This document shows positions 39,799 through 54,324 of a DNA stretch of 64,000 bases, in pieces. The stretch spans positions 372,001-436,000 of the forward strand of contig CAJNDT010004646.1 in NCBI GenBank assembly GCA_905221615.1, written 5' to 3'. The notes below the pieces were generated by a model. That model was given only the letters and a program-made list of their open reading frames with translations. It had not been told where the DNA came from and ran no database searches. How positions within the stretch are numbered: the first letter of the stretch is position 1; each line of letters begins with the position of its first letter. The stretch is from Symbiodinium sp. CCMP2592 (taxonomy: Eukaryota; Sar; Dinophyceae; Suessiales; Symbiodiniaceae). Both the position numbers and the translations under genes were made by a program.

Positions 39799-39887
39799 TC
39801 ACCGACTCAGCGTGCCCCTCCTGTTAGTTAGGGATGGCCATGCCCCATGTTATATATCCGTCCCGCGGATGCCTGATGCATTATTTC

Positions 39888-39905: not shown

Positions 39906-39978
39906 ATTTCAACATTTCTATAAATTTTTGCCCATTTTTGACATCCGCCCCTCGCACATTTCACCATTAAATTTTCAG

Positions 39979-40019
39979 AAATTTATGATAAAAAATTCAT
40001 AAAAATTTATCATAAATTT
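39979..40019. other. 14-bp perfect stem-loop
   Basis: AAATTTATGATAAA at 39979-39992 and its exact complement at 40006-40019 leave a 13-base loop. It lies downstream of the leftmost minus-strand ORF and could end transcription or be part of an element terminus. Confidence 0.7.
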
Positions 40020-40047
40020 TATTACAAAAATTCAGAAATTTTGTAAT

Positions 40048-40083
40048 ATTTTTTGTGATATTTTTTGTGATATTTTTTGTGAT
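40048..40083. repeat. Three tandem copies of a 12-bp unit
   Basis: ATTTTTTGTGAT is repeated three times without a gap, directly beside the stop of the leftmost small ORF. Confidence 0.9.
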
Positions 40084-40092
40084 AAATTATTT

Positions 40093-40362
40093 TTATAACA
40101 GTTGACATTCTTTTAATCGTTTTTCTAAATAATTTTTTCTCTGTTTTACATCTTTTATATATTTGTCGTCTGCTGAAGATTTAACGATTGATTTTTCCAT
40201 TTCTATTATCAATGCTTCAACTCTTGATAACAATGAATATTGTTTTTTTGCAAATTCATTTCTTGCATTGTCCGTTTCTACTTCAAGATATGAAGCTTTT
40301 TCTTTATATACGCTTTTTTCAATATCTTCTCCAGTCATAAATTCATATATAGTTTTCATCAT
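40093..40362 (-). CDS. Small coiled-coil protein, unknown
   Basis: 89 codons, Glu/Lys-rich, mostly helical (ARNEFAKKQYSLLSRVEALI). A TATATATATTACTATATAT stretch precedes the ATG. It shares this upstream layout with the next minus-strand ORF to the right, so the two may be co-regulated. No family recognised. Confidence 0.6.
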   Translation of the reverse strand: MMKTIYEFMTGEDIEKSVYKEKASYLEVETDNARNEFAKKQYSLLSRVEALIIEMEKSIVKSSADDKYIKDVKQRKNYLEKRLKECQLL

Positions 40363-40456
40363 ATATATATTACTATATATGTTTCTTTTTAAAACTTTTA
40401 AAACTTTTATACATTTTTATCTTTTATTTCTTTAAGTGTGTATCGTATAGCACAAT

Positions 40457-40693
40457 TTATGAAATATTATTTTCATACAGTTCTATTAGTTCTTTTTGTA
40501 GCTCAATTTGTTTTTCTAAATACTTCATTTCCTTATCTAAATGTTCCTGTTCTTCTTTTTCTATAACACATTTTTGTTTTATTTCTACAATTTTACTTTC
40601 CCTACTTTCTTTGATAATTTCTAGTTTTTCTAATTCATGTTTTGCCTGTTTGTAGAGTATTTCAAACAATTCATCATGAACTGATTTTTTCAT
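40457..40693 (-). CDS. Small coiled-coil protein, unknown
   Basis: 78 codons, heptad-like throughout (EKEEQEHLDKEMKYLEKQIE). Its upstream TATATATAATACTATATATTTT closely parallels that of the 40093-40362 ORF. No family recognised. The two may be distant duplicates, since both are short, acidic and coiled-coil. Confidence 0.6.
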   Translation of the reverse strand: MKKSVHDELFEILYKQAKHELEKLEIIKESRESKIVEIKQKCVIEKEEQEHLDKEMKYLEKQIELQKELIELYENNIS

Positions 40694-40985
40694 ATATATA
40701 ATACTATATATTTTAGTTTTTAAAACTTTTAAAACTTTTGTTTTTGCAACATGTCATGTGCAGTTCGGCATGTGCAGTCTGACACGAGTGGTTGTGCTGT
40801 GTAACATGTTCTTGTTCCGCTGTAGCATTTGTTGCTCCAGTTTTTTGAGTGTTTCAAGAAACTTTATAAATTCGCTTTGACCCGTCGTTTCTCGGATTGT
40901 ATTTTATAAACTTTTATATTTATGTTTATTTTGAATATAATTTATATTGTATACAAGTCTATATTTTTTATTTTTTTATCCCGAG

Positions 40986-41165
40986 GTCATGCAGATCTCC
41001 GTGAAGACCATGACGGGCGAGACCATCACTATGGATGTTGAAGGCAATGACACGATCAACAATGTCATGGCAAAGATCTACAACCAGTATGATATCGCTG
41101 AAGATGACCAAGTTTGGGATGCTACTTATTTTTTATTAAGTATATACAAAAATATTTTTCCATAA
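40986..41165 (+). pseudogene. Truncated ubiquitin-like coding fragment
   Basis: From ATG at 40989 the frame reads [19 protein letters not shown] and then [20 protein letters not shown], clearly ubiquitin-like over about 43 residues, including the N-terminal beta-hairpin and the first helix. After DDQVW it runs into AT-rich sequence and stops (41163-41165), so the C-terminal half and the diglycine are absent. The coding part is GC-richer than its surroundings and is preceded by CCCGAG, a possible splice acceptor. It is therefore probably a host exon embedded in the element, with the rest beyond an intron or lost. Confidence 0.7.
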
Positions 41166-41229
41166 TAAAATTTTATATAAAATATACAGTAAGGTAAGCT
41201 CACATTCTGCCGAAGAGTTCAACAATGTT

Positions 41230-42009
41230 ATGGGTATGCTATGCTACAGCGACGAAGAAGACAGCAACGACGAAGACATCTGCACTGGTGGACAGGAGAA
41301 CTTGGATGATAAGGACAATAAAGTTTTTTATCAAATAGGAGGGGGTAAAAGGGCTCGTGTTTCTTCATCAAACGCTATGGGGTTCAAATGCACTAGCAAA
41401 TATATTTCTAAAAACCAGCGTATCCGTTTTATCAATGAAGAAGCACGAAGCCTTGAAACACGGATCACCTCTTCATCGGCGGTTTCACGGGTTTTTACCG
41501 AACAAATAGCCCTTATTACAGAAACCTTAGCTTTAGCAGAAACCGATCCAAAGAGGTGCATCCCCACTATTTTAGGGGTTGTGGATAGAAAGGTAAGACT
41601 TAATTTAATTGAGGATCTAGCAAAAAGCAATAACGGGGAATTAAGGGTTAAACAAATGGTTGATGTTTTGTTTCATTATGTAGATGACCAATTAGGGGAA
41701 GTAGAGACTTTGGTTACTGCCCTTAAATCTTATTCTTTACGCTCTATGGAAAAATTAATTGTTAGTTTATGGGGTTCTTCTAATGGGGATATCCAATGGC
41801 AAAAATTATACGGGTCTTTAAGTAAATGCCCTGTTCATGGAGATCGTCGCCATGATACGGAAAACCACCATGACGACGATGACGACGACGACGATGACGA
41901 CGATGGACATGGTGGTAAAAAAGATGGCGATGAGGATATGCCGGACGTGAGTTCCATTTCTATATCTACGCCAAAAAAACGAGGGCGTCCGGCAAAAATT
42001 ACCACTTGA
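41230..42009 (+). CDS. Acidic protein with C-terminal AT-hook, unknown
   Basis: 259 codons in three parts. Residues 1-30 (MGMLCYSDEEDSNDEDICTG) are acidic and use GC-rich codons unlike the rest. Residues about 50-195 are a helical domain with AT-rich codons (FINEEARSLETRI, IALITETLALAETD, MVDVLFHYVDDQLGEVETL) and no recognised family. Residues about 205-235 include a run of 11 Asp. The end reads PKKRGRPAKITT, a canonical AT-hook core (RGRP) for minor-groove binding. A DNA-binding role is likely. The N-terminus may be a fused host exon, in which case the viral start would be further in. Confidence 0.6.
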   Translation: MGMLCYSDEEDSNDEDICTGGQENLDDKDNKVFYQIGGGKRARVSSSNAMGFKCTSKYISKNQRIRFINEEARSLETRITSSSAVSRVFTEQIALITETLALAETDPKRCIPTILGVVDRKVRLNLIEDLAKSNNGELRVKQMVDVLFHYVDDQLGEVETLVTALKSYSLRSMEKLIVSLWGSSNGDIQWQKLYGSLSKCPVHGDRRHDTENHHDDDDDDDDDDDGHGGKKDGDEDMPDVSSISISTPKKRGRPAKITT

Positions 42010-42497
42010 TGAGGTGGGATGTTACAAAATATTTTTTGGATATAGTAAATAATTTTACAATATTTTGTTTTATTCTTTTGTTTTCCCTGCAAAGGTGGCC
42101 ATCATCAGCGTGGGCGCTCTGTGGCTACTGGATCGTCTGGTGGTTGCTTCTTTTGATGTCCTCTTGAAGGTGGGTTGGCAAAAATAATAAATAGTATGGG
42201 TTTATTCTTTTTTCCCTGACGAGGACATGTTAATGACACAGACCATTGCAAGCCAATGGACGGGAGGACAGATTTTATAAAAGGTAATATTTTTCCTTAT
42301 CTTTTGGTTAGTAATTATAATATGTTTTTTGTAGTTCGTTTTTTATTTTAATCCCACACAGGATCCTCGCGAGTGATGGCACAGCACAGCCTCGGGGAAT
42401 GAAGCATCGTCTCGCTGAGCAAAAACAATGCTGGGAAGGGTGATTGGAATAATAAATATTTCAATAAATTATATTTTTTATTGAAATATTTACATTT
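42010..42497 (+). other. Exon-like GC-richer islands in AT-rich sequence
   Basis: There are three islands. 42095-42169 is exactly 75 nt, preceded by TGCAAAG and followed by GTGGGT, and reads VAIISVGALWLLDRLVVASF (then DVLLK), a membrane-like helix. 42224-42271 follows CTGACGAG and reads DMLMTQTIASQWTGGQ. 42362-42440 follows CCCACACAG and reads ILASDGTAQPRGMKHRLAEQ. All lie on the plus strand, with AT-rich spacers between them. They look like short host exons with AG acceptors. Whether they form one gene is not known. Confidence 0.5.
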
Positions 42498-43799
42498 TTA
42501 TTTATTGAATATATGTTGCCTATATATGTTTTGTATTTCTTTTAGATATTGTTTTTTCATTTCTTTATCACCTGCTGACTTTATCCAACTATTATATGCA
42601 CTTTTGTATTTTTTATATGTGGCATTTGATATTGTTTTTCTATTGTTTGCTTCTTCAAATAACTCGCGTATTTTTTGTATTCCTATTTTACTCGGTTTGA
42701 TTAATGTTGTTCCTGTTGTTTCTTCACCTTGACTTTCTTTTAAAATAGTTCCATCTTTTTTAGTTTTTCTTGATCCTTTCCTCGCTGGTTCTTCGGTTGG
42801 TGGTGTTCTTTCTTCTTCTGGATTGCTTCCGGAACCTGACACTCCTCCTTCTTGAAAATTAGGTCGTGGTGGTGTTGGTGATGTTTTAGGAGTTGGTCGA
42901 GGTCTTGATTTCCCTCTCGGTTCCGTTGGTCGTTGTGGTCTCGGTAATTCTGATATCGCAGGTTGGCTTGATGATGCTATCGGTAATGGTTGTTGTGTCG
43001 CTCCTACATTGGGTTGATGTGGTTGTAATATTGTTGTTGGTTGTAAATATTGCATATTTGGTATTGGTGTTGGGTCATATGTCGTAAATTGCCCGTCTCT
43101 CGCCGTCCCTGTGAAATCTAATAATGGCCTAGGAGGTGGCGCTATTCTTCTCATCAACGTATCTCTTAATGCTTGCATGGCTTCTTGTGAAAAACCGGCA
43201 AACGCGGCAGATCTAAAATCCATTCCTGATGCAATATTACCCGCGATATTGCCCCCTACACTTAATGCTCTGTTTCCTAGACTTCTTAAAACTCCTGATC
43301 CTCCTTCTTCTTCTCGTTCTAACTGTTGTTGATGTGCTTGTGTTATTGTTTGTTGGTTGCCTTGTTGTGCCATTGCTATATTTTGCAATGTTTCATTTAC
43401 TTGCGCTAACTGTTGTTCTTGTGGTGTGCCGAATTCTTCAACTATAGACATATCGTCGGTGTCAGTTCCTATATTAAATTGTTCCGGTGATCTTGGTTGT
43501 TCTGGTTCTGGTCTGTCGTGTTGTGTAAACAATGATCTATGAGTTAAATCATTATCTTCTGCATATTGTCGTTGCATGAGATCCCTAGCTATTCGTTCAG
43601 CGATTTGTTTTTCTTGAATTTTCAATTTATCCAAATGATCTTTGCCATCAAAACGAGTTCCTTTATTGCTTTGTTTATAAAATACAGCATCTCTATTAGG
43701 AAAGGGTTTTAACGCGTCTTCGTTATCATTAACCAGTTCCAATATATCTTCATATCTAGATCTTCTGTGAAATTGTATTCCAGCATTTTTAACTACCAT
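42498..43799 (-). CDS. Large structural-type protein, unknown, Pro-rich middle
   Basis: 433 codons. The N-terminal 100 residues are charged (YEDILELVNDNEDALKPFPN). A Gln-rich stretch follows (QQQLEREEEGG). A Gly/Ala-rich segment at about 170-210 (GNRALSVGGNIAGNIASG, AAFAGFSQEAMQAL) is mildly hydrophobic. Residues about 215-345 are Pro-rich and disordered. The C-terminal 60 residues are basic and helical (YKKYKSAYNSWIKSAGDKEM). It sits in a minus-strand run with the penton-like gene, so a virion role is likely. No homologue recognised. A TCTA motif lies 19 bp upstream. Confidence 0.65.
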   Translation of the reverse strand: MVVKNAGIQFHRRSRYEDILELVNDNEDALKPFPNRDAVFYKQSNKGTRFDGKDHLDKLKIQEKQIAERIARDLMQRQYAEDNDLTHRSLFTQHDRPEPEQPRSPEQFNIGTDTDDMSIVEEFGTPQEQQLAQVNETLQNIAMAQQGNQQTITQAHQQQLEREEEGGSGVLRSLGNRALSVGGNIAGNIASGMDFRSAAFAGFSQEAMQALRDTLMRRIAPPPRPLLDFTGTARDGQFTTYDPTPIPNMQYLQPTTILQPHQPNVGATQQPLPIASSSQPAISELPRPQRPTEPRGKSRPRPTPKTSPTPPRPNFQEGGVSGSGSNPEEERTPPTEEPARKGSRKTKKDGTILKESQGEETTGTTLIKPSKIGIQKIRELFEEANNRKTISNATYKKYKSAYNSWIKSAGDKEMKKQYLKEIQNIYRQHIFNK

Positions 43800-43817
43800 T
43801 CTTTTTTATATATTGTT

Positions 43818-44159
43818 TTAGAAAATAGCCTCGCTTAATTCGCTTAATGTATCATACCTTTTCTTAAGATGTTCTAATGAAGTCTCGGGTATTCGTGGAT
43901 TATGCATTTCCCCCTTCAATCTCGCCATTTCACTCTCATAATTTGCTTTCATTTGACCCTCTAATAGTCTTCGTTTAAACGCCATGTTTTTTTCTTTCGC
44001 TTCTCTCGCTTCTAACTGTTTTTTCAAATTCAATAGATAGTCCAGATTTTGTTGACGATATACCAGATCTTCGGATGAATTAACCACAGGATTATCTAAT
44101 GATTTTTTCTTATGTAGTTTTTTATTTTTTTGAAATTTAAACCTATTGTATAATACCAT
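43818..44159 (-). CDS. Coiled-coil protein, unknown
   Basis: 113 codons. A basic N-terminus (YNRFKFQKNKKLHKKKS) is followed by a long charged helix (YLLNLKKQLEAREAKEKNMA). It ends 18 bp before the next minus-strand gene. Its upstream TCTAAATAATAATATATA is identical to the one before the capsid gene, pointing to the same expression class. No family recognised. Confidence 0.6.
   Translation of the reverse strand: MVLYNRFKFQKNKKLHKKKSLDNPVVNSSEDLVYRQQNLDYLLNLKKQLEAREAKEKNMAFKRRLLEGQMKANYESEMARLKGEMHNPRIPETSLEHLKKRYDTLSELSEAIF
43819..43822 (-). promoter_or_regulatory. TCTA motif before the 433-codon gene
   Basis: TCTAAAACAATATA on the minus strand, 19 bp before the ATG at 43799. The same 14 bases occur before the small ORF at 46509. 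Confidence 0.55.
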
Positions 44160-44171
44160 TTGTATATATTA

Positions 44172-44735
44172 TTATTTAGATTTTTTACTTCTAGCCTGAA
44201 ACATAGCTTTGCACATATTATCTGATTTTTCCTGTCTTCTTCTCGTAATTTCGGCGTTCATTGATCTCATTTGCAATTGCAATAATTGCTGTTGTGTCAA
44301 ATTTGCATAAGGGTTTAATGGTTGTTGTTGTATTTGTTGTGGTGGTTTAGGTGGCATTGCTTCAGAAAGAGGTAATTGTTTTTCTTGATATTGTGGTGGT
44401 TCTACTATATTATTTTCTTGTGGTTCTGGTGCTAAGGGTTCAACATTTATTTTTGTTTTTTTTCTGGGAGCGTATTTTTTAACTGGTTTATCAATAATAT
44501 TACTCGGTTTCTTTTCACACACGCTAGGATGACTATATCGTAATGTTTTAGTTGTCATAGGTTTTTTGCAGTCTTTACATTCAGTAGGATTTTTAATAAC
44601 TTCTGTAATTTTTACTCGTTTTTGTTCTTCATTCACAGGTTCATTTTTTTCAATTTCTGTTTCAGGTGGCGCTTCTGTTGCTTCGTTTTCAGGTTCATCG
44701 TTAGCTACAGCATTTTCTGAATTTTGTTCTGACAT
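44172..44735 (-). CDS. Pro/Gln-rich protein with C2HC zinc cluster
   Basis: I choose the ATG at 44735 (MSEQNSENAV) over the upstream one at 44744 because it follows the AT-rich leader directly, as in neighbouring genes. Residues about 50-75 hold ECKDCKKPMTTK and HPSVC, a CxxC...HxxxC zinc cluster. Pro/Gln-rich low-complexity sequence fills the middle. The C-terminus is basic (QARSKKSK). Zinc cluster plus basic tail suggest nucleic-acid binding, possibly in the virion. Family not recognised. Confidence 0.6.
   Translation of the reverse strand: MSEQNSENAVANDEPENEATEAPPETEIEKNEPVNEEQKRVKITEVIKNPTECKDCKKPMTTKTLRYSHPSVCEKKPSNIIDKPVKKYAPRKKTKINVEPLAPEPQENNIVEPPQYQEKQLPLSEAMPPKPPQQIQQQPLNPYANLTQQQLLQLQMRSMNAEITRRRQEKSDNMCKAMFQARSKKSK
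44177..44180 (-). promoter_or_regulatory. TCTA motif before the 113-codon gene
   Basis: TCTAAATAATAATATATA, 17 bp from motif to ATG at 44159; identical over 18 bases to the capsid gene leader. It overlaps the 3' end of the neighbouring Zn-cluster gene. Confidence 0.6.
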
Positions 44736-44766
44736 ATATAACATTCTATATATTTTCTATTTAAAA

Positions 44767-45633
44767 TCATGTAGCGTCTGTATTGTGGAAGAGGAGGCTA
44801 AATGATAAATTAACACCGTTAAAATTTATAAGGTTACCTATTTCATCAGTTATTCTAAATGTTAGTTTTCTTATTGAACGACGCGAGACATTTACATAAT
44901 CATAGTCTGTAACGCCATACGGATCATTTATAATACTAGCAAATGAAGCATTGACGGGGATTTTTTTAACTATGGCATTTGAAAATGTTGATGGACTGTG
45001 AAAATTATTATTTGATAATTCAGGACACGATATATAAATATCTTGATGTGCTAATAAATTTATAAACCCACAAACCCACGGCACTGTAGAAGTTGAAAAA
45101 TCTAGAGGTAGAGGTGTATTTAAAACACTATTTATACTGTTTAAATTATTTAAATCAACATTATTTGAAAAAGATCCTATATTACTAGCAATCATACTAT
45201 CGGGAAGAACAATAAAAATAATTTCCGTATAATTTGATTCAACTGATATTTTATTTGAAATAGTATTATATGTTACAGTGTATGTATTATCTCTACCTGT
45301 AACATCAAAGAAGAAATTTATTTCTCGTTGTATTGTAGATGCCAGTTCGGGAGGTGTATAATTTCCTAGTGGTATTTCAATTCTTAAATAAGTTGTTCCT
45401 GTTGGCGTTGCCGGTGCTAATACTCTGTGTTCAAAATATAAATTTCTATTATTTTCGTTTATTGAATACCATGTGTTAGGAATTGCTAACTCGTGAACTT
45501 GCATAATCGTTCCGTCGGGAATTTCAAATGTTTCCCTTAATTCTATTTGAAAGTCGCTTATACCGCGACTATTTGATGTGCGATATTTTGAATTTACATA
45601 AACCTTTTTATATGTTAATGGTCTGATACTCAT
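44767..45633 (-). CDS. Minor capsid (penton-like) protein
   Basis: 288 codons. It starts MSIRPLTYKKVYVNSKYRTS, then DFQIELRETFEIPDGTIMQV and HELAIPNTWYSINENNRNLY, and continues as alternating short strands to the end (SRRSIRKLTFRITDEIGN). Size, beta-rich pattern and the N-terminal VNSKYR..S.....F.IEL start fit the single-jelly-roll penton proteins of Polinton-like viruses and virophages, which occupy the capsid vertices. This is by pattern memory; no search was possible. It stands back to back with the lipase-capsid run. Confidence 0.7.
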   Translation of the reverse strand: MSIRPLTYKKVYVNSKYRTSNSRGISDFQIELRETFEIPDGTIMQVHELAIPNTWYSINENNRNLYFEHRVLAPATPTGTTYLRIEIPLGNYTPPELASTIQREINFFFDVTGRDNTYTVTYNTISNKISVESNYTEIIFIVLPDSMIASNIGSFSNNVDLNNLNSINSVLNTPLPLDFSTSTVPWVCGFINLLAHQDIYISCPELSNNNFHSPSTFSNAIVKKIPVNASFASIINDPYGVTDYDYVNVSRRSIRKLTFRITDEIGNLINFNGVNLSFSLLFHNTDAT

Positions 45634-45651
45634 ATTACTATATTTTTAGTT

Positions 45652-45655
45652 TAGA
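45652..45655 (-). promoter_or_regulatory. TCTA motif before the penton-like gene
   Basis: TCTAAACTAAAAATATAG, 18 bp before the ATG at 45633. Confidence 0.55.
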
Positions 45656-45666
45656 TAATATATATT

Positions 45667-45891
45667 TCATTTTTTCATTTTTCTCCTGTTCCTCTCTATT
45701 AGTCTTTCATTTAGTTTAGGATTTTGATTGTATCGTTGCTCCACGAATTTTTGATGATAAGGGGTGTTTATATGTTTTATTCTATCCATAAATGTTTTTT
45801 CAATATATGTTTGGCCACATGTTCCACATATAATTTTCTTACCTTTTTTTTCTAATTTCTTTTCTTTTTTTTCTTGCTTCTTTTCAGTCAT
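45667..45891 (-). CDS. Small C2H2 zinc-finger-like protein
   Basis: 74 codons. A basic start is followed by ICGTCGQTYIEKTFMDRIKH and INTPYHQKFVEQ: two CxxC cysteines, then H.....H, giving one C2H2-type finger, with a strongly basic tail (NRRKMKK). It diverges from the lipase gene across a 42-bp shared AT-rich intergenic region. It could be a viral transcription factor or a packaged DNA-binding protein. Confidence 0.6.
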   Translation of the reverse strand: MTEKKQEKKEKKLEKKGKKIICGTCGQTYIEKTFMDRIKHINTPYHQKFVEQRYNQNPKLNERLIERNRRKMKK

Positions 45892-45933
45892 ATATATTAT
45901 ATTTGATAAATTGATTTATAATCTTTTTATATA

Positions 45934-46485
45934 ATGACAAAGATTGAAGGACAATTAAATAAGATGTTAGAACACAACGGCAAAATATCAAATACTCAAG
46001 GTATCAAATATGCATATGATCGTGATAATAAAATTTTTGTAAAGGGAAATAAAATGTATGTTGCGGGGACAACATCTTCAAGGGACTGGCGACAAAATTT
46101 TACAAATCTTAAAACAGGCGGAATTAGAGAGATGGATCGCTACAAGGAAGCGAGACGGGTATTAATGGAAAACCCACAAGTGAATACATTATTAGGGCAC
46201 AGTATGGGCGGTAGCGTTGTTTTAGAATTAAACAAAGAATTTAAGGACAAAAATTCTAAAACGAGAACCTATAACGCTCCTGTAATAAGTTTCTTTTCAC
46301 CTATGATTGGCTTAGATAGACCGACTGAACAGCAAAAGCGATTTAGAATGACAGGCGACCCCGTGAGTGCTTTTGATAACGCGGCTATCAGTTATGATGC
46401 TAAAACTTTCAATCCTATAGCAAGTCATGATATTGACCAATTAGAAGGCATTGATGAAAGAATAAAAATATTAGGTATGTATTAA
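45934..46485 (+). CDS. Lipase class 3-like alpha/beta hydrolase
   Basis: 183 codons. VNTLLGHSMGGSVVLEL at about 83-99 is a GxSxG nucleophile elbow with Ser90. RMTGDPVSAFD supplies a likely acid and ASHDIDQLEG a likely histidine in the usual order for lipase_3 folds. There is no signal peptide. Lipases of this type are carried by some Polinton-like viruses and virophages and are thought to help membrane passage. It is followed 23 bp later by a small ORF and then the capsid gene, so it belongs to the late-type plus-strand run. Confidence 0.75.
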   Translation: MTKIEGQLNKMLEHNGKISNTQGIKYAYDRDNKIFVKGNKMYVAGTTSSRDWRQNFTNLKTGGIREMDRYKEARRVLMENPQVNTLLGHSMGGSVVLELNKEFKDKNSKTRTYNAPVISFFSPMIGLDRPTEQQKRFRMTGDPVSAFDNAAISYDAKTFNPIASHDIDQLEGIDERIKILGMY

Positions 46486-46489
46486 ATTA

Positions 46490-46493
46490 TCTA
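46490..46493 (+). promoter_or_regulatory. TCTA motif before the 72-codon ORF
   Basis: TCTAAAACAATATAATATA runs directly into the ATG at 46509; the motif is 15 bp upstream and begins five bases after the lipase stop codon. Confidence 0.55.
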
Positions 46494-46508
46494 AAACAAT
46501 ATAATATA

Positions 46509-46727
46509 ATGCTTAACAAGGTCAGAAAATCAAAAGAACAAACAAGAATAGGAAAAATTCCCGAGAACATTCAATTTAAAAATAAAATTACAAAAAATAT
46601 AAATAATTCATCTTATGAAATGATTAGGGGAATTGTAGAAACTGATGTTTCAGCTGTAGCGCAACCACAACTAGAAAAACAAATTTCTAAAAATATTAGT
46701 AATTTAAATTCACATAAAAAAAAATAA
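46509..46727 (+). CDS. Small basic protein, unknown
   Basis: 72 codons, Lys/Asn-rich (MLNKVRKSKEQTRIGKIPEN). A motif TCTAAAACAATATA, identical over 14 bases to that before the 433-codon gene, precedes it by 15 bp. Its position between lipase and capsid suggests a virion or DNA-condensing role. No family recognised. Confidence 0.55.
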   Translation: MLNKVRKSKEQTRIGKIPENIQFKNKITKNINNSSYEMIRGIVETDVSAVAQPQLEKQISKNISNLNSHKKK

Positions 46728-46743
46728 TATTAATAATAAAAAA

Positions 46744-46747
46744 TCTA
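46744..46747 (+). promoter_or_regulatory. TCTA motif before the major capsid gene
   Basis: TCTAAATAATAATATATA then AA and ATG at 46764, a gap of 16 bp. Confidence 0.6.
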
Positions 46748-46763
46748 AATAATAATATATAAA

Positions 46764-48227
46764 ATGGATTTAGTTATAGCTGAAACTCAAGACAATATGA
46801 TAAATTCCCTACAGTTTGGACTTCCAGAAAGTGCCGCGTATATTACAGATCGTAAGCAAGTCCACTTTCCTAGTGTATCCGGAAATGTATTTAGTAGCAC
46901 CAATGGCAATAAATATATTAAGTTTGTTATCACAGGTGAAGACAATAATTATATAGATATGTCCAGTATTTGTTTATTTTTTGATCTTGTTAATGATGAT
47001 CTAGATGCAAACAAATTTTTAAGGCCATTAGGAGAAAGTCATGCATTCTTCACTCGTTATAGATGCAACGCGGCAGGTCAGCAAATTAACGACATTGATA
47101 ATTACAATTTAGTATGTGAAGAAATGAAATCTTTTAAATCAGAGGAAGTAAGAAATTTAGATGATATTCAGGAAGGATGCTTAACCCGATACGACAGCAC
47201 AATTAATAGACTTTATGCTTTTGTAATTGAAGGACATGATGCAACAGCAACTAGTCCGGCAAATGACAGAGGTGTAGTATTACCAAAATTAACACGACTT
47301 AATACAACAGGAATTGCACAAAATAAATTCGTGAGGATGGGACATAAACCATGCTGTGGGTTCGTTCAATCTGGATATTATCCTCCAATTAGGTATTGTC
47401 CGTTAGAATTTATTTTTGAAATTTGTAGCGATCCTCAAGAACCGGTAATCAATCCAGCAACACAGGGGGCAAGTGAAGCGGCTGATGATAATAACGGTTT
47501 ATACTTTACGACAAGAAATACCACTACCTCGTGGAAAATTCAAAATTGTATCCTTCGATGCGAGTTGGTCACCGTTGATAATTCCGTTAATAACAACGTG
47601 GTCAGCCACTTATTGAAAGGGGGTCGGCTTAGGATGGTTTATCCCGCCTATCACAGTTTTTCTCAAACTTTCGCGGCAGGAAATACTGAAATCAATATGA
47701 ATATTGTTAAATCCTCAACGAGATTGTCTCAGATGTTCTTCACCTTAAGCAACTCAGATATTCAAACTAATAATGTAAAGGATAAATTCACGTTCAAAAA
47801 ATGGAATTACTTTTACCATCCAATGAAAGTTACGATTGATAATGTTCGTGGTGTGGTTGATAGCGATAAGCAAATTTCATATTATGTTCAGATCGCCAAT
47901 AAAAAGTTCCCAGAACAAGCGATAGAAAGTATAGCTGAATCAATGTATTTCCTACGCCGTGCCGTTAATGTTATGTCTCCGTTTTACGACGGTTTCTCAA
48001 TTGATATTTATAGATACACCAATGACAAGTTTATCGGAGGAATAAATTTTGATAAACAGCCTGATATGAATTTTACTGGTTCCAATACTAAAATGGGTTC
48101 CTTATTGACTTTTAAATTAAAAGGGGCTAATCAAACTTTCGCGCTAGGAATTGAACAGGTTTATGTCACGCTTGTTTCAGAACATGTATTCGAGCTATCG
48201 GAGAGTGCCTCAACGGTTCTTGATTAA
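46764..48227 (+). CDS. Major capsid protein, double jelly-roll type
   Basis: 487 codons. The N-terminal region (QVHFPSVSGNVFSSTNGNKY, then IKFVITGEDNNYIDMSSICL) has the strand pattern and the GNxxxSxxGxKxIxFxI look of Polinton-like and virophage capsid proteins. Two beta-rich halves are suggested by the length and by a second ordered block (WKIQNCILRCELVTVDN through LRMVYPAYHSFSQTF). The protein would form the pseudo-hexameric capsomers of an icosahedral virion. It is the longest gene of the plus-strand run and has TCTAAATAATAATATATA 16 bp upstream. The frame is intact, without stops. The assignment rests on pattern recognition plus the ATPase and penton neighbours. Confidence 0.8.
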   Translation: MDLVIAETQDNMINSLQFGLPESAAYITDRKQVHFPSVSGNVFSSTNGNKYIKFVITGEDNNYIDMSSICLFFDLVNDDLDANKFLRPLGESHAFFTRYRCNAAGQQINDIDNYNLVCEEMKSFKSEEVRNLDDIQEGCLTRYDSTINRLYAFVIEGHDATATSPANDRGVVLPKLTRLNTTGIAQNKFVRMGHKPCCGFVQSGYYPPIRYCPLEFIFEICSDPQEPVINPATQGASEAADDNNGLYFTTRNTTTSWKIQNCILRCELVTVDNSVNNNVVSHLLKGGRLRMVYPAYHSFSQTFAAGNTEINMNIVKSSTRLSQMFFTLSNSDIQTNNVKDKFTFKKWNYFYHPMKVTIDNVRGVVDSDKQISYYVQIANKKFPEQAIESIAESMYFLRRAVNVMSPFYDGFSIDIYRYTNDKFIGGINFDKQPDMNFTGSNTKMGSLLTFKLKGANQTFALGIEQVYVTLVSEHVFELSESASTVLD

Positions 48228-48258
48228 ATAAATAAAAACATTATTAAATTAAATATAA

Positions 48259-48262
48259 TCTA
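48259..48262 (+). promoter_or_regulatory. TCTA motif before the fibre gene
   Basis: TCTACTTAATTTACTA then ATG at 48275. This is the less AT-pure variant of the motif, with a 12-bp gap. Confidence 0.45.
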
Positions 48263-48274
48263 CTTAATTTACTA

Positions 48275-50137
48275 ATGGCATCCGTGAATAACTTTAATAC
48301 AGTTTTTGCAAATCAAATATATAAAATATTTTCTACAGGTGTTTCAGAAATAGGCGACCAATTCGCAACACAGGAATATGTAGATAATGAGATAGCAAAT
48401 ATTAATGTAGGTAATGGAGGAGGTGGAATAACACAGCAAGATTTAGACGATGCAGTGAGTCCCATAATAGCATATAATGCAAGTCAGGATTTAGTAATTA
48501 CCGATATTAATAATAATTTATCTAATAATTTTCAAACTACAACACAATTAAATTCAAATTTTTATAATAAATCACAGGTAGATAGTGCTATTGCCGTTGT
48601 GGATGGTAAAGCATTAACTAATTTTAATGGTATAAATGCTATCAATACAAATCTAACAGATAATTATAAAAATAACACACAATTAAATAATGACTATTAT
48701 ACAAAAACTCAAATAGATGCTAATAATTGGATTGATAATACAGCACTTGCTCCATATGCTCTAACTTCAACATTAACTAGCGATTATTTAACATCATTAC
48801 AAATTTCAACATCATATTATAATAAAAGCGAGGTGGATGGATTAATAGCAGGTGTAAGTGGTGGCGGTGGTGGTGTTACTAATCCTATTGAATTAGTAAA
48901 CAGCAATACAAGTATTGAAAGATACACAAATGCTACAAAATCTAATATTACATTAGATTTATCAATAAATGAAACTGCAAGTGGTATAAGGTTAATTAAT
49001 GGAACTAATGACGACACTGACATGAACACATATTTAGAATGCAACAACACAACAAACGGAACAGTGTTTTATAAACAAATATTTTTAGAAGGAACAACAT
49101 CATTTAATAATGATACTATATTATTACCAATTTCTACTAATGGTATTTCATTATGGAGAGTATCTAATAATACCAATCCAACATTAAGAATTAGAGACGG
49201 CACAGCACAATGGATATATGTCAATAACAATTTTAGATGCACTAACGCTAATACAGAAGACGGGAATATTATGATTTTAAATGATAATAGCGCATCTAAC
49301 AATTCTAATAGAATGAGATTAGGAAGTTTAACGAGTGCAGAAGTGGGAATAGGTAAAGCAAACGAAAGCGGATATTTTTTATCAGTGGGGGGAGCTACTA
49401 AAGTTGATAGTTTAGAAGTTGACAATAATATTACAATGAACGGAGATACAATAACTTCAACAAATAATAATGGTATTGAAATATTTAAAAATACTACAGA
49501 CGCCTCGCCAGTTTTACAAGTTAAGAATGCACAAGGATATATAAAAATGCATTCATTTAATATTAACGCTTATAATACATCAAATGATAGTCAGTCCTTA
49601 TTATTATTGAATACAGCTACCGCAGGCGGTGCAGTATATTGTAATAATTTAGGTATTGGAGCAATAGCAGGAGGTGCAACGAGACTAAATGTAGCAGGTG
49701 GCGGTAGTGCTAATTTTGGAGGTAATTGTGTATTTAATGGTAATGATAATACATTTCAAAATAATATATTAATTAGTAGTAGAGGTAGAATATATCAACA
49801 ATCAAACGCGAATTTTTCATTAAATCATATAGCAACAATTGAACAAAACTTTTGTATTCAAAGTAACAGAAGTGCAGACCCGACACCATCAGATATTTTT
49901 ATTCAATTAAACGATGTAGCAGGAATAACATTAAATAAACCAACAGTATTTAATGACACAGTTAATACAATTGGTAAATTCACATCAGAAGGTGATTTTG
50001 ATGTAGATATCGGAGCAACAGGAACGCCAGAATTTAGAGTATTAGGTAGTAGTGTAAATTTCTTTGAAAAAGCAAGTATTACACATACACAATTAGCGGG
50101 TCCTATAGATCAGATATTTTTAGAAATCCTGACATGA
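48275..50137 (+). CDS. Fibre protein with repeated YYNKSEVD-type units
   Basis: 620 codons. Residues about 80-200 repeat a phage-fibre signature: FYNKSQVDSAI, DYYTKTQIDAN and SYYNKSEVDGLIAG, each after a polar spacer. Glycine runs (GNGGGGI, GVSGGGGGV) act as hinges. The rest is Asn/Thr/Ser-rich beta sequence with repeated NNTMNGDTI-like turns, as in trimeric tail fibres. The frame ends at TGA (50135-50137) while overlapping ATG of the S74 ORF by 4 bp (ATGA). Fibres of this kind normally carry the S74 chaperone at their own C-terminus. A 1-base frame change or -1 frameshifting near 50112-50122 would fuse the two. Confidence 0.78.
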   Translation: MASVNNFNTVFANQIYKIFSTGVSEIGDQFATQEYVDNEIANINVGNGGGGITQQDLDDAVSPIIAYNASQDLVITDINNNLSNNFQTTTQLNSNFYNKSQVDSAIAVVDGKALTNFNGINAINTNLTDNYKNNTQLNNDYYTKTQIDANNWIDNTALAPYALTSTLTSDYLTSLQISTSYYNKSEVDGLIAGVSGGGGGVTNPIELVNSNTSIERYTNATKSNITLDLSINETASGIRLINGTNDDTDMNTYLECNNTTNGTVFYKQIFLEGTTSFNNDTILLPISTNGISLWRVSNNTNPTLRIRDGTAQWIYVNNNFRCTNANTEDGNIMILNDNSASNNSNRMRLGSLTSAEVGIGKANESGYFLSVGGATKVDSLEVDNNITMNGDTITSTNNNGIEIFKNTTDASPVLQVKNAQGYIKMHSFNINAYNTSNDSQSLLLLNTATAGGAVYCNNLGIGAIAGGATRLNVAGGGSANFGGNCVFNGNDNTFQNNILISSRGRIYQQSNANFSLNHIATIEQNFCIQSNRSADPTPSDIFIQLNDVAGITLNKPTVFNDTVNTIGKFTSEGDFDVDIGATGTPEFRVLGSSVNFFEKASITHTQLAGPIDQIFLEILT

Positions 50138-50625
50138 ACGGAGATACAATAATAGAAATAGGAACTAAAAATGTATTAACTGTTAACGATGGAGGTATTG
50201 ATGTTATCGGTGATATTAGTTATACAGGTGGTATTGCCCCCAGTTCTGATAAAAGATTAAAGGAAGATATAAAAGAGATAAATAGAAATAAAGCGATTGA
50301 GATGGTAAAATATATAAAACCGAAAACATACAAATTTATTGATAAAGAAAAATACGGAAACAGGTCTTGTGTGGGTATGGTAGCTAATGATTTTTTAACT
50401 GATAAAATGCCTTCAGAATGGGGGAATATTGTTAAAGAAGGAAGAGATGGTTATTTAAAGTTTGATTATAGTATGTGTGTTCCTATTTTATGGAGTGCTT
50501 TACAGCATTCACTAAATGAAATAGATGATTTAAAGAAACAAATAAAGAAGTTGAAAAAAGATGATAATAACAGTGATAGCTCACCAAAAGCAAAAGCTAA
50601 AGCTAAAGCAAAAAGTAAAAATTAA
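50134..50625 (+). CDS. S74-type intramolecular chaperone domain of the fibre
   Basis: 163 codons. It opens MNGDTIIEIGTKNVLTVNDG, then SSDKRLKEDIKEINRNKAIE, the Peptidase_S74 start with the SDKRLK self-cleavage site, and YIKPKTYKF, VGMVANDFL and the typical helical end (LWSALQHSLNEIDDLKKQIK). A Lys/Ala tail of KAKAK repeats follows. In phages this domain drives fibre trimerisation and then cuts itself off. The reading upstream of the ATG (FRNPD) stays open into the fibre gene, consistent with one split gene. Confidence 0.8.
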   Translation: MNGDTIIEIGTKNVLTVNDGGIDVIGDISYTGGIAPSSDKRLKEDIKEINRNKAIEMVKYIKPKTYKFIDKEKYGNRSCVGMVANDFLTDKMPSEWGNIVKEGRDGYLKFDYSMCVPILWSALQHSLNEIDDLKKQIKKLKKDDNNSDSSPKAKAKAKAKSKN

Positions 50626-50631
50626 TTATAA

Positions 50632-50635
50632 TCTA
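50632..50635 (+). promoter_or_regulatory. TCTA motif before the MGSKTS ORF
   Basis: TCTAAATATATTATATATAT ends at the ATG at 50652; the gap is 16 bp. The S74 ORF directly upstream has no such motif. Confidence 0.5.
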
Positions 50636-50651
50636 AATATATTATATATAT

Positions 50652-50861
50652 ATGGGATCTAAAACATCTAAATCTGTTGCTAGTGAAAATATTAAAAAGA
50701 TAAAAGAACTAGATATCAATGAAAAGACTAAAGCGGATATTTTATTATTTGATACCTTAAAGGATTGTATAGAAAGGATTGAAAAATTAGAAGAAACGAA
50801 GAGTGATAAAATATATTATAAACTACCTGCTGTGAATTTATGTTCATATTCATTGATTTGA
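50652..50861 (+). CDS. Small protein with a possible myristoylation start
   Basis: 69 codons. It begins MGSKTSKS, which fits the eukaryotic N-myristoylation rule (Gly2, Ser6, basic residues), followed by a charged helix (ENIKKIKELDINEKTKADIL). Membrane attachment is therefore plausible. The last residues (LPAVNLCSYSLI) are hydrophobic. A TCTAAATATATTATATATAT leader lies 16 bp upstream. No family recognised. Confidence 0.55.
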   Translation: MGSKTSKSVASENIKKIKELDINEKTKADILLFDTLKDCIERIEKLEETKSDKIYYKLPAVNLCSYSLI

Positions 50862-50898
50862 TAAAATAATATTATTTGTTTATGAAATAATATTATTT

Positions 50899-50926
50899 TT
50901 TAGGGTTTAGGGTTTAGGGTTTGGGG
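50899..50926 (+). repeat. (TTTAGGG)3 telomere-type array
   Basis: Three perfect TTTAGGG units are followed by TTTGGGG. This unit is the telomere repeat of plants and dinoflagellates; here it is internal. Confidence 0.9.
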
Positions 50927-51716
50927 ATATATATGTATTTTGATTTATACTGCTTTTGCACATGTGCACTCTGTCATGCGGTCATGCTTGTTGAACTTGT
51001 TGTTTTTTCCGCAGTCGTTCTCGCTACTGAAACATCCATGTTACCCCCCTTCCTTATGCCCTTCTTGTGCACCATGTCTATTTTTCACCTCGTCGGCTCC
51101 ACTGGTGGAAGCGACGAGACTATCCTTCTCGTGTCTTGGTTGAATATTATTATTTTATAAAATGTAGTAGGTATCTAGTTTTACAACTTTTCATCTAAGG
51201 CAACCACCGTTGCAGCCTATGTTGCAACATGAATGCAATTTGTTTTTTTGTTTATATACTTTTTGTATATATATACATATGTTTGTATATTTTGTCGTTC
51301 TACATCCCCACAATCCAAGGACATGGAGTTCTGTGTGGCACGCTTCAAAGAAATGGAGGAGCGGAACCAGAAGCAGGAAAGAGGATCTATGATAGTAGAA
51401 GATGCTATGAGTTGTCTCAGAAGACAGAAAGAAGAAGAGGAGAAAAAAAGGAAGGAAAATGAAGGAAAGAAAAGGAAGAGAGTGACATGGAACAATTAAG
51501 CATGTGCTTTGTTATTTGTTATTTTTAACTTTCCCTTATAATATATTTTATGTATTTCTTTATTCATGTAAGGATGGCAACGAGAAGTTGCCTGCGGCCT
51601 TTAGAAGGCCACTGCAAAAGTCCATGCCGATTACTACCTCAAAGGCATGGGCAATGGCATCGTCAAAGGTTGTTCCCCCACCACCAAAGAAGAGGCAACG
51701 CGACTAAAACAAAAGC

Positions 51717-51766
51717 CCTAAAAACCCTAAAATTCTAAAACCCTAAAAACCTAAACTCCCAAAACC
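51717..51766 (-). repeat. Degenerate CCCTAAA array
   Basis: CCCTAAAA, ACCCTAAA, ATTCTAAA and ACCCTAAA units are followed by more diverged ones. The orientation is opposite to the TTTAGGG array 0.8 kb to the left. A weaker patch (CTAAAACCC, CCCCCCTAAAAC) lies at about 51842-51876. Confidence 0.7.
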
Positions 51767-52004
51767 ATTTCCAAGGTGACAAAAAAGAAGGACGAAGACA
51801 AGAGGAAAGGATGACGACAAGAAGAAGGAACTGGCAACCTGACTAAAACCCTTAAGTCCTTAACCCCCCTAAAACTTTAAAAACACATCCAAGGTTCTCG
51901 CGCTCACCATGGGCGCTGAACACATGCAGTCCGCTGGTGACAAAACGAAGGAGACCGCTGGGAAGGGTTATAATATTTTTATGAATATTTTTATGAATAT
52001 TTTT

Positions 52005-52775
52005 CTATTGAATTTCTGAAGATATTGTCATAGCTTTTTCAAAGCGAATAAAGAACATACGATTTATATCTTTTGCATTTGTATTTATATATAAGAATGA
52101 ATAGGGAGCGTCGTTTATAGCTATTCTATACATTTCATATAATTCTTCTTTATTCACTAGCGCGGAGTTTTCTTCTAGAAATGAGTTTACTTCATTCATA
52201 TTTTTTAATCGGAATATAAATAAAGCGGATGCGTTTAACCTTACAATAGGAGCTAGGACATTATATTTCTGAGTGGATAATAAAACAGATATTGCATTGT
52301 GGCGACCGCGAGTAAATAGGGAATGTAATATATTTGAATACCTTACGAATTTTGGGTCATCCGCGAAATCATCAATAACGATCAATATTGAATGTAAGTT
52401 TCTTTGTTTATTCTTTTTTTGATAATCTATAACTTTATGTTGTGTTTTTATAATTTGATTTAGCGCCTCGGGATTATATTCTTCAAAGTATGTTTTTTCC
52501 TTTTCTGTATCTACATTCATATGATCGGATATATGTTTTTTTACGCTATTCCATGTGTCATCAACATGAACACTAGGACTGAATATAAATATTCTTTCAA
52601 AGGAGCCTTTATAAATATTCAATATGAGATTTTGTATTAATACAGTTTTACCTCCTGTAGAAGAGGCAACCAATATACCACGGAATGGAAGCGATGGCAT
52701 CATATCATATTTTGAATTTTTGTATGTATATTCTGGAATATCTATTGGTTTGACTATAGGGATGTTATTATTCAT
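52005..52775 (-). CDS. A32-like DNA-packaging ATPase (FtsK/HerA superfamily)
   Basis: 256 codons. The Walker A motif is ASSTGGKT at residues 37-44 (after FRGILV). The Walker B motif is ILIVIDDF at about 130-137, followed by ADD. A later LLSTQKYN (sensor-like strand with Gln) and a terminal FIRFEKAM complete the small packaging-ATPase pattern. Such enzymes pump DNA into preformed capsids of Polinton-like viruses, virophages and NCLDVs. The catalytic residues appear intact. It is transcribed towards the exon-island region and diverges from a 49-codon ORF across 37 bp. TCTATG lies 10 bp before its ATG. Confidence 0.88.
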   Translation of the reverse strand: MNNNIPIVKPIDIPEYTYKNSKYDMMPSLPFRGILVASSTGGKTVLIQNLILNIYKGSFERIFIFSPSVHVDDTWNSVKKHISDHMNVDTEKEKTYFEEYNPEALNQIIKTQHKVIDYQKKNKQRNLHSILIVIDDFADDPKFVRYSNILHSLFTRGRHNAISVLLSTQKYNVLAPIVRLNASALFIFRLKNMNEVNSFLEENSALVNKEELYEMYRIAINDAPYSFLYINTNAKDINRMFFIRFEKAMTISSEIQ

Positions 52776-52785
52776 TATTTTTACA

Positions 52786-52789
52786 TAGA
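52786..52789 (-). promoter_or_regulatory. TCTA motif before the packaging ATPase
   Basis: TCTATGTAAAAATA then ATG at 52775, a gap of 10 bp, within the 37-bp divergent intergenic region. Confidence 0.45.
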
Positions 52790-52812
52790 TTTTTATATAA
52801 ATTAATGATATA

Positions 52813-52962
52813 ATGAATTACGATAAATATATTACAGCAATAAATGAACTTGAAGAAGTAGAACAAATAGTAATAACGGAACCGAGATATAGGCGATGTT
52901 GTTATTCATTGTTAGAAATTTGTAAGGGATTACTACAATACTTGAAACTTAAAAGAAAATAA
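52813..52962 (+). CDS. 49-residue protein, unknown
   Basis: ATG at 52813, TAA at 52960-52962. The sequence begins MNYDKYITAINELEEVEQIV and contains RYRRCCYSLLEIC, so it has an acidic helix, an Arg/Cys patch and a basic tail. The uninterrupted frame fills the gap between the ATPase and the next gene exactly, 17 bp before the latter's ATG, which supports it being real. No family recognised. Confidence 0.5.
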   Translation: MNYDKYITAINELEEVEQIVITEPRYRRCCYSLLEICKGLLQYLKLKRK

Positions 52963-52979
52963 TATTATAATATGTCTAT

Positions 52980-53375
52980 ATGAGCAATGAAAAAGAAGAA
53001 AATAATAATGGTTTTGAATTAACACCAACGCATTTAAAATGTATGCCGTGTAGATGTAGAAAGAAAAATCTAACAAAAGATAGAAAGAAAATTATTGATG
53101 AAAAAGAAGGTAAAATAGTAGTAGAAGAAACAATAGAAACATCAGTAATATCATTTGGAAGAGGAACAACACCAGAACAACAACCGCGAACATTAACAAT
53201 AGAAGAGAGAATAAATGAATTAGAAAATAAAATAGAAGAAATTAAAATTAATAATAATCAATTTCAAAGAAGTATATCAGTTGATGAAAAAATATTATTA
53301 AATGAAAGATTACTAAAAATAGAAAAAGAAGTAGAAGAATTAAAACATGTTTACAGATTTCAGTTAATGGACTAA
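52980..53375 (+). CDS. Coiled-coil protein with a Cys/Arg cluster
   Basis: 131 codons. Residues about 18-35 (HLKCMPCRCRKKNLTKDRKK) contain CxxCxC in a basic context, perhaps metal- or nucleic-acid-binding. A disordered stretch follows (GRGTTPEQQPRTL). Residues about 78-125 form a coiled coil (ERINELENKIEEIK, LLKIEKEVEELKHVY). It is followed by 200 bp with no long frame. No family recognised. Confidence 0.6.
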   Translation: MSNEKEENNNGFELTPTHLKCMPCRCRKKNLTKDRKKIIDEKEGKIVVEETIETSVISFGRGTTPEQQPRTLTIEERINELENKIEEIKINNNQFQRSISVDEKILLNERLLKIEKEVEELKHVYRFQLMD

Positions 53376-53576
53376 CATTTAAAAATTTAAATATAATATA
53401 ATATGACAGGGCAACAATGCCATTTGGAAAGAAGGAGAAGAAAAAGCCCCCAATAGCAACAATGGCACTACATAAGATAGTGGTTAATTAGTTTCTGAAT
53501 TCATAATTTTATACTCACGTTCCCCGATCGTTAATATAAAATTATAAATTTAAAGTTTTATATAAAATATTAATAT
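53376..53576. other. Short intergenic with a possible micro-ORF
   Basis: A 24-codon plus-strand frame at 53417-53491 (MPFGKKEKKKPPIATMALHK) is basic and slightly GC-richer than its surroundings. It could be another exon-like fragment or chance. No TCTA motif is present before the next gene. Confidence 0.3.
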
Positions 53577-53873
53577 ATGACTGAAGTTGTTTTACAAAAG
53601 TCTAACAAAAAAGGCAAAAAATATGACGCTATTCTAGATGGTAAAAAAACTGTATCATTTGGTGCTATTGGATATAGCGATTTTACAAAACATAAAGACG
53701 AAGAAAGAAAAGAAAGATACATAGCAAGACATAAAGTTAATCAGGACTGGACGGATTATAATACTGCTGGATTTTGGGCAAAAAACATTTTATGGAATAA
53801 GCCGACGATAGAAGCATCAATAAAAGACACTGATAAAAAATTCAAGAATATAAAAATTAAAAATAAAATTTAA
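53577..53873 (+). CDS. Small protein resembling a large-algal-virus family
   Basis: 98 codons: SKKGKKYDAILDGKK-like start, then VSFGAIGYSDFTKHKDEERK, RYIARHKVNQDWTDYNTAGF and WAKNILWNKPTIEASIKD. The order K-K-Y-A, V.FG..GYSDFT.HKD..RK..Y..RH, W.....AGFW....LWNKP strongly recalls an uncharacterised family in phycodna- and mimivirus-like genomes (I believe Pfam DUF5754, not verifiable here). The function is unknown. It supports exchange between this element and large algal viruses. Confidence 0.65.
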   Translation: MTEVVLQKSNKKGKKYDAILDGKKTVSFGAIGYSDFTKHKDEERKERYIARHKVNQDWTDYNTAGFWAKNILWNKPTIEASIKDTDKKFKNIKIKNKI

Positions 53874-53933
53874 AAATATATATAGAAACTTTTATTATAA
53901 TTTTTGTAAAAAAATATATTCTAAAGAAAAAAA

Positions 53934-53937
53934 TCTA
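53934..53937 (+). promoter_or_regulatory. TCTA motif before the A10-split ORF
   Basis: TCTATTATAATATAT then ATG at 53949, a gap of 11 bp. A second ATTCTAAAG lies 15 bp further up. Confidence 0.45.
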
Positions 53938-53948
53938 TTATAATATAT

Positions 53949-54324
53949 ATGGAAAATAATACTTTGGAAAAAATGTTAAATGAATTGTCTATGGACGATA
54001 TTAAAGAACAACTGGCATTATATCAAAAACTTTATTATCATAAAAAAAAAATCAGAACAAAATTATTACGAAGTGAAAAAAGAAAGCGCGCGAAAATATC
54101 ATAAAAGAAAGGCTTTAGACAAAATATTAAATGATAAAAATATTGATATAATGGATAAATTAGAACTCACTGAAACTAAAACAGGAGTTAAGGTTAAAAA
54201 AAATCAAAAATACACACTTGACAATGTTGTTATGTTACAACCTTCAAAACAGAAAACGGAAAGGAAAACAGAGAAGAAAACAGACACAGAAACTACAACC
54301 GAAAATGAAAATAAAAATGAATAA
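53949..54324 (+). pseudogene. Small charged protein split at an A10 run
   Basis: ATG at 53949 opens MENNTLEKMLNELSMDDIKE and runs to a stop at 54102-54104 (51 residues). In the +1 frame, after the ten-A run at 54042-54051, an open frame reads SEQNYYEVKKESARKYHKRK and continues to 54324 with a KTERKTEKKTDTET-type tail. The two halves look like one protein separated by one base. The alternatives are a real indel, a homopolymer sequencing error, or transcriptional slippage on A10. TCTATTATAATATAT lies upstream. No family recognised. Confidence 0.55.

What the first reader, a model, noticed from the sequence alone, without database searches (positions are those of the whole stretch)
39906..54324. 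Endogenous Polinton-like/virophage-type capsid module in a dinoflagellate-like genome
Seen: an abrupt AT-rich block carrying intact frames for a capsid protein, penton-like protein, A32-type ATPase with Walker A/B, lipase, and fibre plus S74 chaperone. Known: capsid, penton and packaging ATPase define small Bamfordvirae; lipase and fibre genes occur in Polinton-like viruses. Inference: a virus of dinoflagellates integrated here, and intact capsid frames suggest recent arrival or selection to keep them.
Basis: partly seen in the sequence, partly recalled or inferred. Interest (0 to 1): 0.9.

Follow-up and report, generated by a model that had tools for sequence, protein, structure and literature searches.

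The report
Dinoflagellate Polinton-like virus split by retrotransposon
A 21-kb virus with genes for a shell, DNA packaging, replication and integration is built into an alga-like genome in dozens of copies; the copy seen here looked like a lone shell module only because a large retrotransposon landed inside it and its other third sits on another contig.

The parts
39821..39825 (.). left target-site duplication CTGTT
   Evidence: same CTGTT follows the matching right TIR on contig C1854
39826..40078 (+). left terminal inverted repeat (about 250 bp), begins AGTTAGG
   Evidence: common start in 8 of 9 siblings compared; inverted partner at the right end of 4 full siblings; 186 of 186 identical to the C1854 right TIR
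40093..40362 (-). small ORF, 89 aa, variable; match in 8 of 10 siblings
40457..40693 (-). small ORF, 78 aa, match in 10 of 10 siblings
40989..41165 (+). N-terminal ubiquitin-like half domain, in a GC-richer accessory island
   Evidence: PF00240 2.3e-7; in frame with the following ORF in sibling C831
41230..42009 (+). 259-aa accessory ORF with an acidic run and AT-hook-like tail
   Evidence: 1 homologue at E<=0.001 in a 5.8-billion-protein search; match in 8 of 10 siblings
42498..43799 (-). 433-aa ORF, conserved, function unknown
   Evidence: match in 10 of 10 siblings; also in the family-B copy
43818..44159 (-). 113-aa ORF
44172..44744 (-). 190-aa ORF
44767..45633 (-). penton (minor capsid) protein, 288 aa
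   Evidence: DUF5901 2e-8; model matches Sputnik and mavirus pentons, best 4.5e-7
45667..45891 (-). 74-aa ORF, variable
   Evidence: match in 6 of 10 siblings
45934..46485 (+). lipase-like alpha/beta-hydrolase, 183 aa
   Evidence: sub-threshold Lipase_3 0.0064; homologous to the part ahead of the capsid in Skav gene model P0084 (BLASTP 1e-14, 25% identity); intact in 10 of 10 siblings
46509..46727 (+). 72-aa ORF
46764..48227 (+). major capsid protein, double jelly roll, 487 aa
48275..50137 (+). fibre, N-terminal part (620 aa); frame broken relative to siblings
50134..50625 (+). S74 chaperone part of the same fibre gene (163 aa)
   Evidence: PF13884 4.3e-9; one frame with the fibre in 9 of 10 siblings
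50652..50861 (+). 69-aa ORF
50918..51974 (.). GC-richer island, differs or missing between copies
   Evidence: alignment gaps
52005..52775 (-). A32-type DNA-packaging ATPase, 256 aa
   Evidence: PF04665 1.2e-12; STIV B204 0.013
52980..53375 (+). 131-aa ORF
53577..53873 (+). Tlr6f family protein (DUF5754), 98 aa
   Evidence: PF19058 5e-21; name from PMC12220804 passage
53949..54324 (+). gene of 120-135 aa in 9 of 10 siblings, in two frames here
54353..54357 (.). AACTG, target duplication of the LTR retrotransposon inside the PLV
   Evidence: AACTG follows the LTR on C1854 where PLV sequence resumes
54358..54789 (+). LTR (432 bp, TG...CA) of a high-copy retrotransposon (about 19.7 kb inferred) inserted in the PLV; the window appears to end inside it

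Best explanation
The block is the left two-thirds of one integrated copy of a ~21-kb Tlr1-type Polinton-like virus. Shown: TIRs of about 250 bp, 5-bp target duplications, DJR capsid, penton, A32 ATPase, fibre with S74 chaperone, Tlr6f and, in the right third, an RVE integrase and a ~1,300-aa protein with a superfamily-1 helicase. Inferred working: the linear DNA is integrated by the RVE integrase. It is replicated by the large protein (protein-primed polymerase fused to helicase; the polymerase part rests on motifs only). It is packaged by the ATPase into an icosahedral particle that attaches by the fibre. New copies arise by reinfection or re-integration of DNA from such particles, which keeps the capsid genes under purifying selection. 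This copy was later hit by an LTR retrotransposon at 54,357/54,358, and its right third is found on contig C1854. As it stands it is interrupted and its fibre frame is broken, so it is probably not autonomous.
Against: AlphaFold models are of moderate confidence (mean pLDDT 68.5 and 64.5). No Pfam polymerase match in the large protein. No maturation protease matched among the frames scanned. No relatives confirmed in IMG/VR with capsid, penton, ATPase or large protein, so no free virion is in evidence. No expression data. The dN/dS pairs are not independent.
Confidence: 0.9

Rival explanations
1. The window copy is genuinely truncated at 54,357 on this chromosome (loss of the right third by recombination between retrotransposon copies), and C1854 is an allele or the reciprocal product.
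For: C4645 is 610,714 bases long, and no match to the integrase, large protein or 171-aa protein lies on it among those scored. Ectopic recombination between high-copy ~19-kb repeats is plausible.
Against: The C1854 half keeps exactly the two target duplications and the private TIR expected of the same insertion. C1854 (41,215 bp) ends 14.9 kb beyond the LTR, less than the ~19.2 kb expected of the whole retrotransposon, as a break inside a repeat would; but only about 0.2 kb of that side was read.
Confidence: 0.25
2. The capsid genes are domesticated by the host (kept for a host function, such as particle-based transport or defence).
For: Many stop-free capsid frames: 52 full-length at 79-100% identity (listed); low dN/dS.
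Against: Selection is seen on several virion genes in mobile, TIR-bounded copies; the window fibre is broken; several partial copies carry stops. Selection during viral replication explains this without a host role.
Confidence: 0.05
3. The elements behave as provirophages: silent until a giant virus infects, then expressed from giant-virus-type late promoters and lowering its yield.
For: TCTAAA within 50 bases upstream of 9 of 22 family-A ORFs against 2.5 expected, reached by 0 of 500 shuffles; the mavirus promoter TCTA corresponds to the CroV late promoter (PMC8547959 passage).
Against: Family B alone is weak: TCTAAA in 3 of 11, reached by 6% of shuffles. The motif is not confined to virion genes: 2 of the 9 are the 188-aa gene and the large replication gene. 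TATATA and other words are enriched as strongly, so host TATA-type promoters could explain the pattern. No giant virus of this host was examined.
Confidence: 0.3
4. Assembly contaminant: a free virus contig joined to host DNA.
For: Sharp GC change.
Against: Eight of nine sibling left borders compared share the terminus with different flanks; target duplications; nested high-copy retrotransposon of the same genome.
Confidence: 0.01

Closest known systems
Tlr1 element of Tetrahymena and Tlr1-type PLVs (PMC11071308 passages)
   Same: RVE integrase together with a large protein with a superfamily-1 helicase; DJR capsid; Tlr6f family protein (its link to Tlr1 inferred from the name)
   Different: C-terminal HNH-like tail here (by eye) where Tlr1 has GIY-YIG, though HNH is reported in other PLVs of this type; dinoflagellate-like host; ubiquitin-like accessory gene; no capsid sequence match to Pfam, PDB or IMG/VR
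'Dino group' endogenous viruses (Bellas 2023, PMC10120064, passages)
   Same: many capsid copies in dinoflagellate genomes, insertions of 15-30 kb, sometimes different GC from the host, retrotransposons nearby
OmPLV of Oxyrrhis marina (PMC12721341, passages)
   Same: dinoflagellate PLV, low GC, helicase-polymerase fusion, fragmentation, near retrotransposons
   Different: OmPLV has a tyrosine recombinase and no detected RVE integrase, the helicase at the N terminus, and no recognised minor capsid protein
Mavirus and EMALEs (PMC8547959 passages)
   Same: integrated elements, penton and capsid fold, TCTA-type upstream motif; truncated elements reported there
   Different: fibre/S74 and Tlr1-type large protein here; helper dependence unknown

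Membership tests
Polinton-like virus (Tlr1 type) | double-jelly-roll major capsid protein | tested here: met
Polinton-like virus (Tlr1 type) | single-jelly-roll penton | tested here: met
   moderate-confidence model, Foldseek 4.5e-7 to Sputnik penton
Polinton-like virus (Tlr1 type) | A32/FtsK-type packaging ATPase | tested here: met
Polinton-like virus (Tlr1 type) | RVE integrase | tested here: met
   sibling C167; C1854 half of this copy, 97% identical to it
Polinton-like virus (Tlr1 type) | superfamily-1 helicase in a large multidomain protein | tested here: met
   AAA_30, Viral_helicase1
Polinton-like virus (Tlr1 type) | vOTU and polymerase palm upstream of the helicase | tested here: inconclusive
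   no Pfam match; motifs such as NQCW, HIYT, NVN and KTDAF conserved between families A and B, their meaning recalled
Polinton-like virus (Tlr1 type) | TIRs and target-site duplication | tested here: met
Canonical Polinton/Maverick | pPolB with exonuclease and a maturation cysteine protease | tested here: inconclusive
   neither matched by Pfam in the frames scanned; absence by this method is not proof
Virophage (Maveriviricetes) | dependence on a giant-virus helper | not testable with these tools
   only an upstream-motif hint
Bellas 2023 Dino group | capsid clusters with the Dino group | not testable with these tools
   their sequences were not held; 5 of 120 listed relatives bear Skav names

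The most novel reading that the evidence does not exclude
A large family of endogenous Tlr1-type PLVs in a dinoflagellate-like genome acts as provirophages: their genes wait behind a TCTA-type late promoter that only a giant virus of the host can read, so infection wakes them and the host population is protected. The same virion block travels with two different arrangements of integrase and replication genes.
Probability: 0.25. Interest if true: 0.75.

Novelty: new member of a known kind. Interest (0 to 1): 0.45.

Why it matters
It turns an apparent orphan capsid module into a bounded virus family with dozens of stop-free capsid copies in one genome, a clean case of a retrotransposon nested in a provirus, and a warning that high-copy retrotransposons can split proviruses between contigs. 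The TCTAAA motif gives a direct test of whether dinoflagellates carry virophage-like defences.

Tried and rejected
Free relatives: capsid (one sequence, then an alignment), penton alignment, ATPase and large protein were scanned in viral contigs; none confirmed. The large protein found nothing in the phage collection. PDB by sequence: no capsid hit, none for the integrase at 0.01, one weak helicase hit (0.18) for the large protein. No tRNA or Rfam gathering-level match in the window. PHROGs gave a terminase match for the ATPase (8.7e-15) and tail-fibre matches for the S74 part. Rejected: a structural-only element mobilised in trans (opposed by siblings and C1854); my own earlier reading of a simple truncation (kept only as a rival); contaminant (shared borders).

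No tree with named PLVs, virophages or adintoviruses was built.

The dN/dS script stopped with an error at the sixth gene; only five genes have values. Its fibre value (0.16, 7 of 10 copies kept) is not relied on, because its rule for choosing the start called two long fibre frames short (compare); the third short one (C380, 542 aa) is short too. The promoter tests left out the ubiquitin-like, 259-aa and S74 frames. In one search TCTAAA ranked fourth among hexamers for family A and fourth for A plus B, and was not among the top six for family B alone.
Full report
What was checked. GC drops sharply at about 40.0 kb and recovers at about 54.3 kb.

Other virion genes. The 288-aa protein matches DUF5901 (2e-8), and its model (pLDDT 64.5) matches Sputnik and mavirus pentons (4.5e-7 and 2.6e-6). 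The 256-aa protein is an A32-type ATPase (1.2e-12). The 98-aa protein at 53,577 is DUF5754 (5e-21), called Tlr6f in PMC12220804 (passage). S74 chaperones on PLV fibres are described in the same paper (passages). Fibre and S74 form one frame of 772-812 aa in 9 of 10 siblings; in the window they are two frames. The small gene at about 54.0-54.3 kb also differs in frame from siblings.

Copies and borders. In the same genome 97 capsid matches were reported, 88 of 525 candidates having been scored. I fetched 10 close copies as separate halves. Of 9 left borders compared, 8 begin AGTTAGG at the place of window 39,826 with different flanks; the ninth (C444) has AGTTAGG two bases on and then diverges. 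All 10 right halves continue past the window's right edge. Four were followed to the end. They are 21,232, 21,337, 21,470 and 21,038 bp long, with left-right TIR matches of 278, 252, 244 and 252 columns carrying 7, 3, 6 and 1 mismatches (gaps 27, 0, 11, 0). Target duplications of 5 bp are exact in 3 of 4 and 4 of 5 bases in the fourth.

The missing third. In sibling C167 it holds a 171-aa protein, a 308-aa RVE integrase (7e-10), a 188-aa protein, a large protein whose helicase part matches AAA_30 (3e-7) and Viral_helicase1 (2e-5), and a 101-aa protein. The large protein's open frame is 1,306 aa in C167. Upstream of the helicase no Pfam family matched convincingly. Motifs conserved between two divergent families fit the vOTU-palm-helicase plan of Tlr1-like proteins with a C-terminal HNH or GIY-YIG domain (PMC11071308 passages); the motif reading is mine, from recall.

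Why the window looked like a module. The sequence from 54,358 on is a high-copy repeat: 1,609 and 1,321 first-look candidates in two searches, 40 scored in each, at 96-100% identity. With a query across the junction, the 39 other scored matches start at query positions 140-151, 34 of them at 149-151, that is at about window 54,358. The repeat begins TG, and same-strand pairs lie about 19.25 kb apart on four contigs (C2646, C326, C70, C547), as the LTRs of a retrotransposon do. Contig C1854 shows this LTR (432 bp, 98.8%) followed by AACTG and then the PLV's right part. AACTG is also the last five bases before the LTR in the window. The right end of the PLV on C1854 is followed by CTGTT, the five bases before the left end in the window. 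The two TIRs are identical over the 186 bases compared, while 7 other copies are 84-92% like the window's. So C1854 carries the rest of the same copy: integrase 97%, large protein 96%, 171-aa protein 100% identical to the C167 queries, without stops. The two parts add up to about 21.7 kb without the retrotransposon. Either the contigs break or are misjoined in the retrotransposon, or a rearrangement separated them; I could not read the far side on C4645.

Selection and age. Between copies, median dN/dS is 0.06 for capsid (7 copies plus window, 28 pairs), and 0.10 for penton, 0.04 for ATPase and 0.02 for the lipase-like gene (10 copies plus window, 55 pairs each, of which 53, 48 and 53 had dS over 0.03 and entered the ratio). 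The pairs are not independent. Copies therefore diverged while their virion proteins were functional. Identical TIRs fit a young insertion. The later retrotransposon and the broken fibre frame show that this copy has begun to decay.

Two architectures. Of 52 full-length, stop-free capsids of at least 79% identity, 26 have the integrase downstream on the same strand at 6-8 kb, 14 have a different integrase (53-65% identity) upstream on the opposite strand at 8-10 kb, and 12 have none scored nearby, the window copy among them. One copy of the second kind, read on C2035, has the same virion gene block with the large protein and integrase at the other end.

Promoters. TCTAAA occurs within 50 bases upstream of 9 of 22 family-A ORFs (17 of the window, 5 of C167; 2.5 expected; 0 of 500 shuffles) but of only 3 of 11 in family B (6% of shuffles reach it). 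The nine include the 188-aa and large-protein genes, so it is not confined to virion genes. TATATA is as enriched as TCTAAA. The mavirus motif TCTA corresponds to the CroV late promoter (PMC8547959 passage). This is a lead, not a result.

Known or new. Bellas 2023 (PMC10120064, passages) reported 2,535 capsids in Polarella glacialis and a Dino group of dinoflagellate capsids; PMC7805220 (passages) found six capsids in Symbiodinium microadriaticum without further PLV genes; OmPLV (PMC12721341, passages) is a different dinoflagellate PLV; in Breviolum minutum, Maverick elements are enriched at domain borders (PMC11071213, passages). A search for Tlr1 with polinton and dinoflagellate returned 3 papers; the listings and passages that I saw of them do not describe this architecture, but whole texts and supplements were not read. 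I file it as a new member of a known kind.

Noticed in passing
40989-42009: A ubiquitin-like half domain and a 259-aa ORF with one homologue found in the protein search sit in a GC-richer island; in sibling C831 the ubiquitin part is in frame with the following ORF; 2 of 10 siblings lack the 259-aa part.
   Followed up: partly
L033, L034 (C2035): Second architecture: same virion block, but the large protein and integrase lie at the opposite end, the integrase inverted.
   Followed up: partly
L020 7077-7260: 23-bp tandem, partly palindromic repeats between the virion and the integrase/replication parts; the retrotransposon landed in this array.
   Followed up: no
55040-62542: A 2,500-aa open frame with a weak KptA/Tpt1 RNA 2'-phosphotransferase match (1e-4, below cut-off), apparently inside the high-copy retrotransposon.
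   Followed up: no
35845-37833: Reverse transcriptase frame (RVT_1 1e-7) left of the virus.
   Followed up: no
50900-50925 and 51718-51870: Runs close to TTTAGGG/CCCTAAA (plant-type telomere unit, recalled) inside the element.
   Followed up: no
C167:207814-229045 and the capsid at C167:237061: Two copies about 23 kb apart in the same orientation; integrase and large protein are 100% alike while the capsids are 96% and 89% like the window's.
   Followed up: no
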